This document shows positions 20,799-27,264 of a stretch of 35,220 bases of DNA, in pieces (within the stretch, counting starts at the first letter, position 1; every line of letters begins with the position of its first letter). The stretch comes from Syntrophorhabdaceae bacterium (GTDB lineage: Bacteria > Desulfobacterota > Syntrophorhabdia > Syntrophorhabdales > Syntrophorhabdaceae), in assembly GCA_035541755.1 (NCBI GenBank), contig DATKMQ010000050.1:1-35220 (forward strand). Direction: 5' to 3'. The notes under the pieces were generated by a model that was not told where the DNA came from, made no database searches, and saw nothing but the letters and a program-made list of their open reading frames with translations. Position numbers and translations under genes: made by a program.

Positions 20799-21575
20799 GT
20801 GTTACATCACACGGCAGTAATAGACAGTCAGGCGCGGATCGATGAGGATGTTGACATAGGACCTTACTGTACCATCGATGGACCGGTCATCATCAAGAGG
20901 GGCACAAAGCTTATCAGCCATGTGGTGGTTCAGGGCGCCACAACGATCGGCGAGAACTGCACGGTAAGCCCTTTCGCCTCTATCGGAGGGGCGCCTCAAG
21001 ATATCACATACATGGGAGAAGAGACGCAGGTAGTCATCGGACACAACAATACCATTAAAGAATACGTTACGATAAACAGGGGTACCGTGCATGGCGGGGG
21101 CACGACTAAGGTAGGCGATCATAACCTGATCATGGCATACGCGCACATAGCTCATGACTGTGCCCTGGGCAACCATGTGATCATGACAAACGGCGCAACC
21201 CTGGGCGGCCACGTACAGGTGGCCGACTTCGCCACAATCAGCGCATTTTGCGCCATACATCAGTTCTGCAGAATCGGACAGTACGCCTTCGTGAGTGGAC
21301 TCACCGGCATTCCCAACGATGTCCCGCCTTTCGTTATTGCAGCGGGAGGAGCGGGCAACCGCGCCAAACTCTATGGGCTCAACGTTGTGGGTTTGGAACG
21401 TCACGGTTTCAAGAAAGAAGAAATATCACAGCTCAAGAAGGCTTACAAGCTGCTCTTCAGATCCGCCCTTCCCTTGAGCACATCCCTGAAAATCATCCAG
21501 GAAGAGATTCGGAGTGAACACATTGAAACACTCATCGACTTTATGAAAACATCAAAAAGGGGTGTATGTCGCTAA
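20799..21575 (+). CDS. lpxA: acyl-ACP--UDP-GlcNAc O-acyltransferase LpxA
   Basis: 258 residues. It performs the first step of lipid A synthesis, transferring a 3-hydroxyacyl chain to UDP-GlcNAc (or to UDP-GlcNAc3N if GnnA/GnnB act). A left-handed beta-helix of hexapeptide repeats is followed by an alpha-helical tail. The catalytic base is H119 in AHIAHDC (H125 in E. coli). The GGAPQD segment is also conserved. The start codon is GTG with AAGGAG 8 bases upstream. It overlaps the oxidoreductase gene by 10 bases. Confidence 0.96.
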   Translation: MLHHTAVIDSQARIDEDVDIGPYCTIDGPVIIKRGTKLISHVVVQGATTIGENCTVSPFASIGGAPQDITYMGEETQVVIGHNNTIKEYVTINRGTVHGGGTTKVGDHNLIMAYAHIAHDCALGNHVIMTNGATLGGHVQVADFATISAFCAIHQFCRIGQYAFVSGLTGIPNDVPPFVIAAGGAGNRAKLYGLNVVGLERHGFKKEEISQLKKAYKLLFRSALPLSTSLKIIQEEIRSEHIETLIDFMKTSKRGVCR

Positions 21576-22504
21576 AAGTCGCTCTGGTCGGCCTCGGCCA
21601 TATGGGGAAGATTCATTTCAATAAGCTCCTCACCATTGATGGCGTCGAGGTATCCGCGATCGCTGATACGAATACCGCTCTTGCCGGCGAGACCGCACAC
21701 AGGATGGGATTTAAACTCTATGAGCGATGGCAGGACACAATCCCTTTGTGCCAGGCGGCAATCATCGCTACGCCTACGGAAACACATCACACTATCGGCA
21801 AGGCCTTTCTTAATGCGGGCAAACACGTTTTCATGGAGAAGCCTATTGCGGTGAATACGGCTCAGGCGCAGGAGCTCATAGACAGCGCGGCTGCCCATAA
21901 TCTTGTATTCCAGATTGGCCACCTCGAACGGTTCAACCCCGCTTTCTCTCATGGCCGTCGTTTTGTTGAAAAGCCGATCCTTATCGAATCGACCCGAACG
22001 AGTCCATTCACCGGAAGATCGACCGACGTGGATGTGGTCCTTGATCTCATGATCCATGATCTCGATCTGTTGCTTTCCCTCGTGCCTGATGAGATCGGCG
22101 AAGTTCACGCGCAGGGCCTCTGTTTTATGACGGATAAGCTTGACGCGGTGAATGTAAGGATCGAGTTTTCGGGTGGCTGCATCGCAAACCTGATGGCAAG
22201 CAGAATCTCCTCCAGGAAAGAACGCATGTTGACAATATACGAAGAAGGCAAGTCTCTCTCCATAGATCTGCTCCAGGGGAAATGCACAAGTTTGGTGAAA
22301 AACCAAACGGGCTCAGTCGATACATCAGAATACGCCGCCTCGCGGCTTGACCCGGTTGAGGACGAATTGCTCGAGTTCATCGGTTCCATCCGGGACAAAA
22401 AAACCCCGAGCATCACCGGCATCGATGGATTAAAAGCCCTCGCGCTTGCCACAAGAATCAAAGAACACATCGCAGGGAAGAAGCGTGTCCCGATCATTCG
22501 ATAA
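21566..22504 (+). CDS. Gfo/Idh/MocA-family NAD(P)-dependent oxidoreductase in the lipid A cluster
   Basis: 312 residues. A Rossmann fold starts with ALVGLGHMGKIH, followed by the EKP motif with K92 (MEKPIAVN) and a C-terminal substrate domain with DLMIHDLDLLLSLV (catalytic-type Asp/His). It is wedged between lpxA and lpxB with 10- and about 20-base overlaps, so it almost certainly handles a UDP-sugar or lipid A precursor. GnnA, which oxidises UDP-GlcNAc at C3 to make the diamino sugar of some lipid A species, belongs to this family and is found beside lpxA; the partner transaminase GnnB is not in this window. A role specific to deltaproteobacterial lipid A is inferred, not shown. Confidence 0.88.
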   Translation: MSLKVALVGLGHMGKIHFNKLLTIDGVEVSAIADTNTALAGETAHRMGFKLYERWQDTIPLCQAAIIATPTETHHTIGKAFLNAGKHVFMEKPIAVNTAQAQELIDSAAAHNLVFQIGHLERFNPAFSHGRRFVEKPILIESTRTSPFTGRSTDVDVVLDLMIHDLDLLLSLVPDEIGEVHAQGLCFMTDKLDAVNVRIEFSGGCIANLMASRISSRKERMLTIYEEGKSLSIDLLQGKCTSLVKNQTGSVDTSEYAASRLDPVEDELLEFIGSIRDKKTPSITGIDGLKALALATRIKEHIAGKKRVPIIR

Positions 22505-23645
22505 TGAGATTGTTCTTATTACCGGTGAACTTTCCGGAGAGTTACACGCGGCGAACCTCGTAGGGCGCTTCAAGGGCCACCCTGAATTCACATTCAGCGC
22601 GGTCGGGGGCAAAAGGCTTGCTCAAGCGGGTGCCCGTCTTATCTGCGATTACCGGGATATTTCCCTCACCGGAGTCAGCGAAATATTCTCCAGGCTTCCC
22701 CATATTCTCAGGGCTTTCAGTGTGGTAAAGAAGTATATCCGGCAAAACAAACCTGCTCTGGTCGTCCTCGTGGATTTCCCCGGATTCAATCTGAGGATAG
22801 CCCGCTTCGCCAAGAGAAGCGGCATCCCCGTTGTATACTTCATTCCGCCCCAGATATGGGCGTGGAGAAAAAATCGTATCCGTGTTATCAAGAAATATGT
22901 GGATAGAGTGATCTGTATTCTCCCCTTCGAAAAGAGGCTCTATGATTCATACGGCATCGACGCCCTCTATGTGGGACACCCCTTCATCGATACGGTTCGG
23001 CCTTCCCTCTCAAGAGACGAGTTTCTCAAGGTCATTGGAAAAAATGAGGGCAACCCCGTTATCACGATCATGCCCGGAAGCAGGGAAAACGAGATCAAGA
23101 AACACCTGCCCGTACTGATCGACACAGTAAACATCATGAAAAAGAACCTTCCCGAAATGATCACGGTCCTGCCTTTAGCTGAAAATATACAGGAAGAGAT
23201 GCTCGCGCCCTTCAAAGAGGGCCTCAACAAAATAGTGTTGGTCAAAAACCATGCGTACGACGCACTGGCTCACTGCGATGCCGCTATTGTGGCATCAGGG
23301 AGTGTCACGCTGGAAGCCGCAATACTTAAGGCCCCTACAATCGTTATCTACCGGATTTCTCCTCTTTCCTACTTCATCGCGAAGATGCTCGTGAAAACAG
23401 ACTTCATCAGCCTTCCCAATATTATCGCCGAAAGAGAAGTTTTTCCAGAATTCATCCAGGACCTAGACCCCGAAAAGATTGCGGAAAGGGCTTTATATAT
23501 GGTACATAATGGGAAACAGGAGATAAGAAAAGGTATTGAGGGGATCACAGGAGAGCTTAATAAACACAATGCTTATGAAAATGCCAGAGACGGAATCGTC
23601 GAGTTTCTAGAGGAGAGATATGGCGCTCTATCGCAGACTCCTTGA
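22485..23645 (+). CDS. lpxB: lipid A disaccharide synthase LpxB
   Basis: A family GT19 glycosyltransferase that joins UDP-2,3-diacylglucosamine and lipid X into the tetra-acyl disaccharide at the inner membrane. Motifs are ITGELSGELHAANLV, VDFPGFNLRIA, FIPPQIWAWRKNRI, LPFEKRLYD, YVGHPFID, MPGSRENEIKKHLP and a C-terminal ASGSVTLEAA for UDP binding. The open frame extends to a TTG at 22446, but the GTG at 22485 places the glycine-rich start 7 residues later, as in other LpxB proteins, and gives the usual 386 residues. The start overlaps the oxidoreductase by 20 bases and the end overlaps msbA by 26 bases. Confidence 0.94.
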   Translation: MSRSFDNEIVLITGELSGELHAANLVGRFKGHPEFTFSAVGGKRLAQAGARLICDYRDISLTGVSEIFSRLPHILRAFSVVKKYIRQNKPALVVLVDFPGFNLRIARFAKRSGIPVVYFIPPQIWAWRKNRIRVIKKYVDRVICILPFEKRLYDSYGIDALYVGHPFIDTVRPSLSRDEFLKVIGKNEGNPVITIMPGSRENEIKKHLPVLIDTVNIMKKNLPEMITVLPLAENIQEEMLAPFKEGLNKIVLVKNHAYDALAHCDAAIVASGSVTLEAAILKAPTIVIYRISPLSYFIAKMLVKTDFISLPNIIAEREVFPEFIQDLDPEKIAERALYMVHNGKQEIRKGIEGITGELNKHNAYENARDGIVEFLEERYGALSQTP

Positions 23646-25371
23646 GTTTCTCAAACCCTACTGGGCAAAACTTGCCGTGGCCATGGCCTGTATGGCTGTG
23701 TATTCAGGCAAAAGTCCGCTCCAGGCATACATAGTGAAGTATGTCGTAGATGATGTCTTTGTGAACAAAAATGCGAAGATGCTCTACCTTATGCCGCTCG
23801 TTGTTATTCTTCTATTCCTGATAAGCGGTTTCTTTTATTATCTTCAAGCGTATTTCATGGGATATGTGGGTCAGAGGGTAGTCACGGATATCAGAAACCT
23901 CGTCTTCGCCAATCTCCAGAAACAACCCCTTTCTTTCTTTGACAAGACCCCGACAGGCCAGAGTATCTCGAGGATCATGAACGATGTAGGACTTATCCAG
24001 GGCACCGTATCAGACTCAGTGACGGCGATCCTCGTAGACGTGTTCAGTATCGTGGGTCTTATCGGCGTTGTTTTTTACCGTGACTGGAAACTTGCAACAA
24101 TCGCGTTCATCGTGCTTCCTTTCGCTATTTACCCCATCGTTTCATTCGGAAAAAAATTAAGAAAAGTCGGAATCAATACGCAGAAATCGGCGGCCCGCCT
24201 CACGAGCTTTCTCCATGAGACGATCACGGGCCAGCGCATCGTCAAGGCGTTCTCCATGGAAACGTATGAAAACGGACGGTTCAATGGAGAAAACGAACAG
24301 ATGTTTCGTATTATCATGAAACGAACAAAGCTTCGCGCCCTGTCTCATCCGATCATGGAAATCATCGGCGGTATCGCCGTCGCCGTCGTGATCTTGTATG
24401 GAGGAGGCGAAGTCATAGCCGGCCATTCAACGCCCGGTGACTTCATGTCTTTTACGGCAGCGCTTCTTTTCCTTTACGAACCTGTCAAGAGATTAAACAA
24501 AGAAAACCACAACGTCCAGCAGGGCCTCGCCGCGGCCCAGAGGGTCTTTGAGATAATCGATAGAAAGCCGGAAATAGAAGACAAACCGGGGGCCGCCGAA
24601 CTCGAAAATATTGACGGCGTCATCGAGTTTAAGAACGTGTCCTTCAAATACGATGAGAAGATGGTGCTCAAGAATATCAATCTGAGGATTGATAAGAATG
24701 AAGTTGTGGCCCTTGTTGGGGAAAGCGGGGTGGGCAAAACCACACTTGCCAATCTCATACCAAGATTTTACGATACGACTCAAGGCGGCATTGAAATAGA
24801 CGGATTTGACGTACGCAACGTATCATTGAACTCGTTGAGGAGAAATATCGCGCTCGTCACCCAGGACGTTATCCTCTTTAACGATTCAATCAGAAACAAT
24901 ATCGCTTACGGCGTGACTCCTGAAGAGGATAGGCTCGTGCATGCCGCCTCCATGGCCTTTGCCCACGAATTCATCGTCAAGTTTGCCAGAGGCTACGAGA
25001 CAGTGGTTGGAGAGAAGGGGGTCAGGCTTTCGGGCGGACAGAAGCAGAGGATTGCCATCGCGCGGGCCCTTTATAAGAACGCGCCTGTCCTGATCCTCGA
25101 CGAGGCCACAAGCTCTCTCGACGCCGTGTCCGAGATCGAGGTTCAGAAAGCGCTGGAGAACCTTATGAAAGGACGAACCACGATCATCATTGCACACAGG
25201 CTCTCAACCATTATGAACGCCAACAGGATCGTGGTCCTCGAAAAAGGCATGATCGCTCAGGTGGGCACCCACAAGAGCCTTATCGAGGCCGATGGCCCGT
25301 ATAAAAGACTCTATGAATTGCAGTTTAAAGAAGGCTCACAGAAGAAGATTATTCAAATCAGGAACAAATAG
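23620..25371 (+). CDS. msbA: lipid A export ATP-binding/permease protein MsbA
   Basis: A 583-residue ABC half-transporter that flips lipid A-core across the inner membrane as a homodimer. Six membrane helices lie in residues 1-320 (e.g. LYLMPLVVILLFLISGFFYYL). The nucleotide-binding domain at about 335-575 has Walker A GESGVGKTT, Q-loop LVTQDVILF, signature LSGGQKQRIAIARAL, Walker B VLILDEATSSLD and the H-loop IIIAHRLSTI. The ATG follows GAGGAGAGAT. Its position directly after lpxB supports MsbA rather than a drug exporter. Two bases separate it from the DUF374 gene. Confidence 0.95.
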   Translation: MALYRRLLEFLKPYWAKLAVAMACMAVYSGKSPLQAYIVKYVVDDVFVNKNAKMLYLMPLVVILLFLISGFFYYLQAYFMGYVGQRVVTDIRNLVFANLQKQPLSFFDKTPTGQSISRIMNDVGLIQGTVSDSVTAILVDVFSIVGLIGVVFYRDWKLATIAFIVLPFAIYPIVSFGKKLRKVGINTQKSAARLTSFLHETITGQRIVKAFSMETYENGRFNGENEQMFRIIMKRTKLRALSHPIMEIIGGIAVAVVILYGGGEVIAGHSTPGDFMSFTAALLFLYEPVKRLNKENHNVQQGLAAAQRVFEIIDRKPEIEDKPGAAELENIDGVIEFKNVSFKYDEKMVLKNINLRIDKNEVVALVGESGVGKTTLANLIPRFYDTTQGGIEIDGFDVRNVSLNSLRRNIALVTQDVILFNDSIRNNIAYGVTPEEDRLVHAASMAFAHEFIVKFARGYETVVGEKGVRLSGGQKQRIAIARALYKNAPVLILDEATSSLDAVSEIEVQKALENLMKGRTTIIIAHRLSTIMNANRIVVLEKGMIAQVGTHKSLIEADGPYKRLYELQFKEGSQKKIIQIRNK

Positions 25372-25373
25372 CC

Positions 25374-26038
25374 ATGGCGAAGCCCATAAAGTCTTTTCTT
25401 ATGCTGAAGATTTTCCCACCGCTTATCTGGCTTTTTCTCACGATCTTGAAATCGACCCTGCGTATAGAACACATCAATAAGGGGCAAATAGAAGACGCCT
25501 GGGCCAATGGAATGAACTTCATTATCTGCTTCTGGCACGGCAGGCTCCTTATGATGCCCTTCGCCAAAGAAAAGGGGGGCGGAAAGGTTCTCATTAGCAG
25601 GCACAGGGACGGCGAGTTGATCGCTCGTGTGGTGCGTCTCTTCGGATTGATGGCCATCAGGGGCTCTTACCGAAAGGGAAGCGTCTCATCGTTGAGAGAG
25701 ATTATCCGCGATCTTAAGGCGGGGGTCGATGTGGCAATAACACCAGACGGTCCGAAAGGGCCCGGATACAAAGTGAAAGAAGGCATCGTAGAGCTTGCCG
25801 GACTCTCCGGCAAGGCTATCGTTCCGCTCACGTACGGTGCCGGTAAAAAAAAACTTTTCATTCCTGGGACAGGTTTACTCTCCCCTACCCTTTTTCCAGG
25901 GTTGTCTTTCTCTGGGGTGACCCGATCTTTATTGACCACCCCATAAACCGTGAAAATATAGAAAAGAATCGTCGGGAACTGGAAGATACTCTGAACGCCC
26001 TCACGGCAAAGGCAGATAGCATGGTATGTGGCGATTAA
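25374..26038 (+). CDS. DUF374 lysophospholipid/lipid A acyltransferase-like protein, frameshifted at an A9 tract
   Basis: Frame 0 from ATG 25374 encodes a normal DUF374 N-terminus: one membrane helix, FIICFWHGRLLMMP, SRHRDGELIARVV, RGSYRKGS and ITPDGPKGPGYKVKEGIVELA. After the A9 run (25845-25853) it turns into non-family sequence and stops at 25946 (190 residues). The -1 frame after the run restores the family end: HSWDRFTLPYPFSRVVFLWG, then GDPIFID, to a stop at 26036-26038. One extra A, or a -1 slip, gives 221 residues, the usual length. The restored frame overlaps waaA by 13 bases like its operon neighbours, so the long product is likely the intended one. DUF374 includes LpxJ-type lipid A late acyltransferases; no LpxL-like gene is in the cluster. 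Confidence 0.82.
25845..25853 (+). other. A9 homopolymer / slippery site in the DUF374 gene
   Basis: Nine consecutive A residues are read as three AAA Lys codons in frame 0, followed by CTTTTC. Any A-AAA-AAA heptamer within it suits -1 ribosomal slippage, and A9 also promotes RNA polymerase or DNA polymerase slippage. A small CCTG/CAGG hairpin (25863-25873) and an ACCCT/AGGGT inverted repeat (25887-25902) follow. A sequencing or assembly indel is the simplest alternative. Confidence 0.85.
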
Positions 26039-27264
26039 TCTACAATGCCTTCGTTACACTCACCCTGCCCTTATTTGTGGCATTCGGATTGACAAAGCAG
26101 AAGATACGGAAAAATCTTTTCGAACGGCTTGTACCGCGCGCATCCGCCCACCCCTCCGTGAGGCCCATCTGGGTCCATGGCGCGTCAGTCGGGGAGGCCA
26201 TGATAGCCGAGAACCTGATACAGCAGATAATCAAGGCCGCCATCACCGATGAGTTTCTTATCACGACAAATACGTACTATACTAAAGACCTTCTCGCCAA
26301 GCGACAGGGCAATAAATCGTATGTTGCAGCCCTTCCTCTGGACATCATCTGGTCAGTGAAACGCTTTCTCAACCAGTGGGAACCGAGAGCTCTGCTCATC
26401 GTAGAAACCGAGATATGGCCTAACCTCGTTTGGGAGGTAAAAAGGCGAGGCTTGCCTGTCATCATCCTCAATGGAAGGATTTCCGACAGCACGTTGAGTA
26501 ATTACAGACGGATAGCTTTTTTCATGCGGACCGTGCTTTCTCAGGTAGACCTTGTCCTTGCCCAGTCTCAAGAGCACGTAGACCGCTTCATCAGCATCGG
26601 CATGGACCCCAAGCGCGTGATCAATGCGGGTAACATAAAATACTTCCGCGATATTGAAGAGAAGGCCTCCAACAACGAGAAAGAAAACATTGTCACCTTC
26701 GGGAGCATCAAAGAGAAGGAACTTCATGCGGTCTACGAGGTTACCCGCAAAATCAAGAGTGCCTTTCCGGGATATACGGTCTATATCGCCCCTCGCGAAC
26801 TGCATCTTACGAGCGATATAGTAAGAGATCTTTCACCCATGTTCCGTGTAGCTCGCCACTCTCACCTTCCGGATCGGCCACCCCCCGACATTGATGTGGT
26901 GGTGGTAGACACCATAGGAGACCTCTTCGGAATCTACGCAAGAAGTAAGATCGCCTTCGTGGGAGGAAGCCTCGCCCCTTACGGCGGTCAGAATCTATTG
27001 GAGCCGCTTTTCTTCGGAACCCCTGTTCTTTTCGGACCCTTCGTGGACAATTTCAGAAACATCGCTGATAGAATAATCGAGGCTAAAGCCGGCGGCATGG
27101 TGCAAGACGCCGACGAACTGGCGGGCAAACTTGCCGATATCCTGCATGACGATAACCTTCGGCGCGAGATGGGCGAGAGGGGAAAACTCATCATCAAGGA
27201 ACAAAGGGATGTGATGAACAAGACCGTCGAGTACATCGCAGCCGTCATAAAAGCTAACCGATAA
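26026..27264 (+). CDS. waaA: 3-deoxy-D-manno-octulosonic acid (Kdo) transferase
   Basis: A 412-residue GT30 glycosyltransferase that adds Kdo to lipid IVA at the cytoplasmic face of the inner membrane. The N-terminal anchor helix (about 5-22) is followed by the catalytic motif HGASVGEA with E57. Further family blocks are TTNTYYTKDLLAKRQ, VETEIWPNLVWEVKRRGLPV, NGRISD, VNAGNIKY-like (INAGNIKYF) and the CMP-Kdo binding end VGGSLAPYGGQNLLEP. Length is normal. The ATG overlaps the frame-restored DUF374 end by 13 bases; in frame 0 there would be a 79-base gap with no ribosome site. Confidence 0.96.
   Translation: MWRLIYNAFVTLTLPLFVAFGLTKQKIRKNLFERLVPRASAHPSVRPIWVHGASVGEAMIAENLIQQIIKAAITDEFLITTNTYYTKDLLAKRQGNKSYVAALPLDIIWSVKRFLNQWEPRALLIVETEIWPNLVWEVKRRGLPVIILNGRISDSTLSNYRRIAFFMRTVLSQVDLVLAQSQEHVDRFISIGMDPKRVINAGNIKYFRDIEEKASNNEKENIVTFGSIKEKELHAVYEVTRKIKSAFPGYTVYIAPRELHLTSDIVRDLSPMFRVARHSHLPDRPPPDIDVVVVDTIGDLFGIYARSKIAFVGGSLAPYGGQNLLEPLFFGTPVLFGPFVDNFRNIADRIIEAKAGGMVQDADELAGKLADILHDDNLRREMGERGKLIIKEQRDVMNKTVEYIAAVIKANR

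What the first reader, a model, noticed from the sequence alone, without database searches (positions are those of the whole stretch)
25374..26038. A9 tract splits a DUF374 lipid A acyltransferase-like gene: slippage, phase variation or error
Frame 0 stops at 190 residues after a non-family tail, while the -1 frame right after the A9 run (25845-25853) encodes the exact family C-terminus (SWDRF, SRVVFLWGDPIFID) and ends inside waaA like the other overlaps of this operon. Both halves are clean family sequence with no other stop, so decay is recent or the shift is functional. A homopolymer in a surface-lipid gene is the classic shape of a phase-variable contingency locus; A-AAA-AAA also suits ribosomal or transcriptional slippage. 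DUF374 includes LpxJ-type late acyltransferases, and no LpxL-like gene is in this cluster, so the switch could set lipid A acylation.
Basis: partly seen in the sequence, partly recalled or inferred. Interest (0 to 1): 0.75.

Follow-up and report, generated by a model that had tools for sequence, protein, structure and literature searches.

The report
Conserved slippage site in lpxJ gene
A run of nine A's splits the gene of a lipid A acyltransferase into two reading frames in this bacterium and in nearly 80 related species, so the active enzyme can only be made when RNA polymerase (or the ribosome) slips there: a conserved, apparently undescribed case of recoding in an outer-membrane lipid gene.

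Summary
In the LpxJ-type (DUF374) gene, frame 0 ends after 190 codons, and A9 at 25845-25853 leads into a -1 frame that encodes the family C-terminus and ends 13 nt inside waaA. The same split at the same three Lys codons occurs in 40 of 44 species of the window's order, in 38 of 53 sequences of a second class of the phylum, and in 0 of 41 other DUF374 genes read. The -1 frame is under the same purifying selection as the upstream frame (pN/pS 0.25); the frame-0 tail is under none (1.4-1.5). The -1 segment carries the W-D pair whose mutation abolishes activity in Rickettsia LpxJ, so active enzyme needs the shift. Sequencing error, decay and phase variation are very unlikely. No downstream RNA structure or upstream Shine-Dalgarno-like signal is conserved, the run is always 9-10 A, and clade 2 mixes split and unsplit genes with equally long runs. 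This favours RNA polymerase slippage (one A added) over -1 ribosomal frameshifting, but no RNA data exist. It is a new member of a known kind (like Thermus dnaX, Shigella spa13) in a gene where I found no report of it.

The parts
25374..25946 (+). frame-0 ORF of the lpxJ-type (DUF374) gene, 190 codons; stop TAA 25944-25946
   Evidence: PF04028 89 bits
25844..25844 (+). T directly before the run, invariant in 40 of 40 split genes of the order; makes TAA (25844-25846) in the -1 frame
25845..25853 (+). A9 slippery run over three Lys codons
25853..26038 (+). -1 frame segment T-F-H-S-W-D-R-F ... C-G-D-stop: C-terminal part of LpxJ including the essential W-D pair
26026..26038 (+). 13-nt overlap of the -1 ORF end with the waaA start
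26026..27264 (+). waaA (Kdo transferase), downstream gene that could be translationally coupled
23620..25371 (+). msbA-like lipid A exporter, upstream neighbour conserved in both clades

Best explanation
The A9 run is a conserved recoding site. Transcripts that copy nine A's are translated to a 190-residue protein that lacks the C-terminal part of the fold and the essential W-D pair. On a fraction, RNA polymerase slips on the run and adds one A. Normal translation of that mRNA gives full-length LpxJ (221 residues), and those ribosomes end 13 nt inside waaA, where they can restart. The shift thus sets how much active LpxJ (3' secondary acylation of lipid A) is made and, in this order, may tie it to Kdo transferase. 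Shown: the split, its conservation, selection on the -1 frame, and that the essential residues lie only in that frame. Inferred: that a shift happens, that it is transcriptional, its efficiency, and the coupling. I give about 0.95 to expression by recoding and about 0.75 to polymerase slippage as the main route; the score below is for both together.
For: Same split at the same codons in 40 of 44 species of the order and 38 of 53 sequences of a second class, 0 of 41 other phylum genes. pN/pS of the -1 frame 0.25, frame-0 tail 1.4-1.5. W-D of SWDRF is invariant in 51 sequences and matches W172-D173 of R. typhi LpxJ, whose alanine mutants are inactive (PMC6148475). AAA AAA AAA and the 5' T are kept far beyond codon usage. 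For the polymerase: run of 9-10 A kept although a ribosomal heptamer needs only 7 and A_AAA_AAG never appears; no RNA structure or SD-like signal; split and unsplit genes with equally long runs coexist in clade 2; two tRNA-Lys, UUU and CUU, as in Thermus (PMC5009743); polymerase insertions outnumber deletions on A7-A11 (PMC6260861) and every split gene needs an insertion. Nine A's in another gene gave about 40% shifted product in E. coli (PMC3711429).
Against: No transcript or protein data. All split genes need the same direction, which Antonov et al. read as a sign of ribosomal frameshifting (PMC3711429). The species are not independent, so the naive probability overstates. Some relatives are in frame, so the split is not indispensable.
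Confidence: 0.72

Rival explanations
1. -1 programmed ribosomal frameshifting: tRNA-Lys pairs slip back on A_AAA_AAA within the A9 run of a uniform mRNA. The outcome for LpxJ is the same.
For: The heptamer A_AAA_AAA is present in all split genes; the direction is always the same.
Against: No downstream structure (mean z near 0) and SD-like 4-mers in only 7 of 40 and 11 of 38 genes; the run is longer than needed; A_AAA_AAG never appears; a second tRNA-Lys (CUU) exists.
Confidence: 0.22
2. The recoding is tolerated, not regulatory: Lys codons drifted into a slippery run, a 1-nt deletion became fixed because slippage rescued the product, and the run is now kept only to preserve the rescue (as in insect endosymbionts). 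This is a rival on purpose and can be true together with the best explanation of the mechanism.
For: Mix of split and in-frame long-run genes in clade 2; several changes of state on the tree; endosymbiont precedent (PMC5009743); an LpxL homologue may soften the loss.
Against: Homopolymer indels are frequent, yet 40 of 44 species of the order stay split and only one has the in-frame A10; genomes are large and free-living, with 34-60% G+C in these genes; the 13-nt waaA overlap is kept.
Confidence: 0.4
3. Phase variation by replication slippage: A9 is the OFF state of a contingency locus.
For: A homopolymer in a surface-lipid gene; one in-frame A10 in the order (L037).
Against: One run length in 39 of 40 split genes of the order; the shift state is shared across two classes; nucleotide-level constraint on the flanking T.
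Confidence: 0.03
4. Sequencing error or a decaying pseudogene.
For: A lone frameshift in a metagenome-assembled genome is usually this.
Against: Same split in 78 genomes from separate assemblies, some nearly closed; purifying selection on both halves.
Confidence: 0.01

Closest known systems
Thermus thermophilus dnaX (polymerase slippage on nine A's)
   Same: A9 in the sense strand of a non-mobile gene, two tRNA-Lys, two C-terminal variants (PMC1088944; PMC5009743)
   Different: There the long product is in frame and slippage gives the short one; here the genome encodes the short one and slippage must give the active long one.
Shigella spa13/spa32 (transcriptional slippage)
   Same: Slippage gives a needed C-terminal extension whose end overlaps the next gene and affects its expression (PMC5009743)
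   Different: Plasmid-borne secretion gene, experimentally shown; here lipid A genes, not tested.
Magnesium chelatase and other GeneTack clusters (Antonov 2013)
   Same: Conserved -1 shifts at A7-A11 with tested efficiencies, about 40% with nine A's (PMC3711429)
   Different: Other genes. The paper names a 'Tetraacyldisaccharide kinase / acyltransferase' cluster, which reads as a junction of two genes, but I could not read its supplement.
Buchnera and Blochmannia frameshifted genes rescued at poly(A)
   Same: Genomic frameshift at a long A run with function kept by polymerase slippage, 12-50% corrected transcripts (PMC5009743)
   Different: AT-rich, reduced endosymbiont genomes; here large free-living genomes over an order and a second class.

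Membership tests
LpxJ / DUF374 lipid A late acyltransferase | PF04028 domain over its cut-off | tested here: met
   89 bits against cut-off 26.8
LpxJ / DUF374 lipid A late acyltransferase | W-H, D, D and W-D residues needed for activity in R. typhi LpxJ | tested here: met
   W54-H55, D79, D125 before the run; W-D only in the -1 frame; constant spacing. The frame-0 product alone fails this.
LpxJ / DUF374 lipid A late acyltransferase | 3' secondary acylation of lipid A | not testable with these tools
   Inferred from family and lipid A gene cluster.
Programmed transcriptional slippage gene | Conserved homopolymer of about nine or more A/T at the frame change | tested here: met
   A9-A10 in every split gene with the full site readable
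Programmed transcriptional slippage gene | New frame under protein-level selection | tested here: met
   pN/pS 0.25
Programmed transcriptional slippage gene | Transcripts with inserted or deleted bases | not testable with these tools
   No RNA data held.
-1 programmed ribosomal frameshift | X_XXY_YYZ slippery heptamer | tested here: met
   A_AAA_AAA inside A9
-1 programmed ribosomal frameshift | Downstream structure or upstream SD-like stimulator (usual, not universal) | tested here: not met
   Mean z near 0; SD-like 4-mers in a minority
Phase-variable contingency locus | Run length varies, switching the gene on and off | tested here: not met
   Between species 39 A9 and 1 A10 among 40 split genes of the order; within a population not testable here.

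The most novel reading that the evidence does not exclude
The split is a regulatory device: the slippage rate, which depends on polymerase state, temperature or nucleotide supply, sets the ratio of inactive to active LpxJ and, through the 13-nt overlap, the output of waaA, so that lipid A acylation and Kdo addition are tuned together by polymerase infidelity. The split may date to a common ancestor of two classes of the phylum.
Probability: 0.15. Interest if true: 0.8.

Novelty: new member of a known kind. Interest (0 to 1): 0.64.

Why it matters
Conserved recoding in non-mobile bacterial genes is known for rather few genes (dnaX, prfB, some secretion genes). This adds an outer-membrane lipid gene kept split over an order and a second class of bacteria, with a clear need for the shift because two residues essential in a homologue lie beyond it. 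Annotation pipelines will tend to call lpxJ truncated or a pseudogene in these lineages. The mix of split and unsplit long-run genes in clade 2 is a natural test of whether such splits are selected or only tolerated.

Tried and rejected
Sequencing error, decay and phase variation: rejected by the relatives. Two separately translated halves: in the window the -1 frame has TAA at the start of the run and no ATG, GTG or TTG before W-D, so the C-part cannot be started on its own with W-D (read). Dual coding of the frame-0 tail: no constraint. Stimulatory RNA structure: none found. A general habit of slippage in this order: dnaX shows no conserved long A run in the 30 loci held, and KKK in waaA is rarely AAA AAA AAA. 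A first pattern search of the phylum used a wrong spacing and is uninformative. The test of clade 1 plus clade 2 as one group did not finish on the full tree; on a reduced tree it is not rejected (p-AU 0.71), so one or two origins remain open. The scan of genome contigs gave only three loci.

Full report
WHAT IS THERE. The window is one whole contig (C50, 35,220 bases) of a 3.85-Mb genome in 180 contigs. A relative in the same genus (G001) has a contig of the same length (41,641 bases) as PNOF01000018.1, labelled Syntrophus sp. SW.3.55. I take the order to be Syntrophorhabdales; that rests on my memory of GTDB and was not tested. The gene at 25374 lies in a lipid A cluster: lpxD, fabZ, lpxA, a Gfo/Idh/MocA oxidoreductase, lpxB, an msbA-like transporter, then this gene, then waaA and mazG. 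Frame 0 runs 25374-25946. The A9 run is at 25845-25853. The -1 frame after it stops at 26036-26038, 13 nt inside waaA.

THE SPLIT IS CONSERVED. I collected the homologous gene from the order (46 genomes), from a 395-genome sample of the phylum and from a second class (63 genomes) (DNA), and located both halves by tblastn. After removing duplicates, 44 species of the order have the junction: 40 are split at the same place with the C-terminus in the -1 frame. The four others are one in-frame A10 (G025), one interrupted run in frame (G006), one gene without a run (G043) and one A9 gene in frame through a nearby 1-nt difference (G039). In the second class 38 of 53 sequences are split and 15 are in frame, 8 of these with runs of 10-11 A. 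Among 41 other DUF374 genes of the phylum that were read none is split; these are the better-scoring ones, not all. One genome of the family (G013) has no match, and one (G061) is cut off before the site.

IT IS NOT THERE BY CODON USAGE. In the 40 split genes of the order all three Lys codons are AAA. AAA is 54% of Lys codons in the same loci, giving a naive probability near 1e-35 that ignores shared ancestry. The base before the run is T in 40 of 40, across AGT, GGT, CGT, TCT and TGT codons, although T is about 12-22% at comparable positions. In waaA of the same species only 2 of 20 KKK triplets are AAA AAA AAA. In 156 kb of loci, runs of at least nine A occur 42 times at this site and 8 times elsewhere.

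SELECTION. In the order, the -1 frame after the run has pN/pS 0.25 (first 81 nt), equal to frame 0 upstream (0.25). The frame-0 reading of the same stretch gives 1.4-1.5. The stop of the -1 frame is exactly 194 nt from the run start in 40 of 40. So the protein that selection sees is the joined one, and the frame-0 tail is not selected.

WHY THE SHIFT IS NEEDED. In Rickettsia typhi LpxJ, alanine changes at W60, H61, D86, D132, W172 and D173 abolish activity (PMC6148475). W54-H55, D79 and D125 match the first four and lie before the run; W-D of SWDRF matches W172-D173 and lies after it. With three Lys the spacing agrees (D79, D125 and D166 against D86, D132 and D173); the match rests on spacing and motif, I did not align the Rickettsia protein. 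W and D are invariant in 51 phylum sequences. The joined protein (read with two Lys, 220 residues) is predicted at mean pLDDT 90 with the last strands and a long C-terminal helix in the -1 part; its closest solved folds are PlsC, PatA and LpxM. In the 190-residue product the tail falls to pLDDT 48-67. A separately started C-part is unlikely, since the -1 frame has TAA at the run and no start codon before W-D.

POLYMERASE OR RIBOSOME. Both machines can slip on A9. Favouring the polymerase: no structure downstream and no consistent Shine-Dalgarno-like element; 9-10 A kept where a ribosomal heptamer needs 7; the efficient A_AAA_AAG never appears; split and unsplit genes with equally long runs coexist in clade 2; two tRNA-Lys genes, UUU and CUU, as in Thermus, whose dnaX uses polymerase slippage (PMC5009743); polymerase insertions outnumber deletions on A7-A11 (PMC6260861), and every split gene needs an insertion. 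Against: the single direction, which Antonov et al. read as favouring ribosomal frameshifting (PMC3711429). I put polymerase slippage at about 0.75. E. coli tests of another gene with nine A's gave about 40% shifted product (PMC3711429), so a useful yield is plausible; the real yield here is unknown.

THE NEXT GENE. In the order the end of the -1 frame overlaps the start of waaA by 13 nt in nearly every species, while in the window frame-0 ribosomes stop about 80 nt before it; in clade 2 waaA mostly starts a few to about 200 nt downstream. In Shigella spa13 the same layout makes slippage affect the next gene (PMC5009743). Coupling of lpxJ and waaA is therefore a reasonable hypothesis, limited to this order and untested.

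ORIGIN. On a protein tree of 136 sequences the order forms a starred clade (100) and the second class another (99), but their relation is unresolved. A tree that joins them is not rejected (p-AU 0.71, reduced set). Within the order at least 3 changes between split and unsplit are needed, within the second class 6. So the trait is old and has been lost or gained several times. Because homopolymer indels are frequent, 40 of 44 species staying split argues for selection on the split state, but neutral retention is not excluded.

VERDICT. A conserved recoding site in lpxJ, most likely polymerase slippage, for which I found no report in the papers I could search; supplements of the GeneTack study could not be read. 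New member of a known kind.

Noticed in passing
window 25844; loci of the order: The base 5' of the A run is T in 40 of 40 split genes although the codon changes (AGT, GGT, CGT, TCT, TGT). A weak base pair next to the run may ease slippage, or the TAA it makes in the -1 frame may matter; unexplained.
   Followed up: partly
L054, L139, L140 (G054, G093, G128) and L057 (G044): In two other families of the phylum the DUF374 gene sits in an open frame of about 620-685 aa; in L054 the sequence after the DUF374 part reads like WaaA, so lpxJ and waaA look fused there.
   Followed up: partly
L156, L171, L176, L182, L183, L184, L191 (second class): In-frame lpxJ genes that still keep an A10 run; if it slips, they would make a fraction of truncated product, the mirror image of the split genes.
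   Followed up: partly
window 21566-22504: Gfo/Idh/MocA oxidoreductase between lpxA and lpxB, best NCBIfam hit UDP-GlcNAc 3-dehydrogenase but below its cut-off; it could belong to a GnnA-type path to 2,3-diamino sugar lipid A.
   Followed up: no
G013 (same family): The only genome of the family with no DUF374 match (99% complete); it has the order's best-scoring PF03279 gene.
   Followed up: no
G000, loci L066, L073, L077, L078: Other A9 runs on the sense strand of long open frames in the same genome; whether they slip or are conserved was not examined.
   Followed up: no
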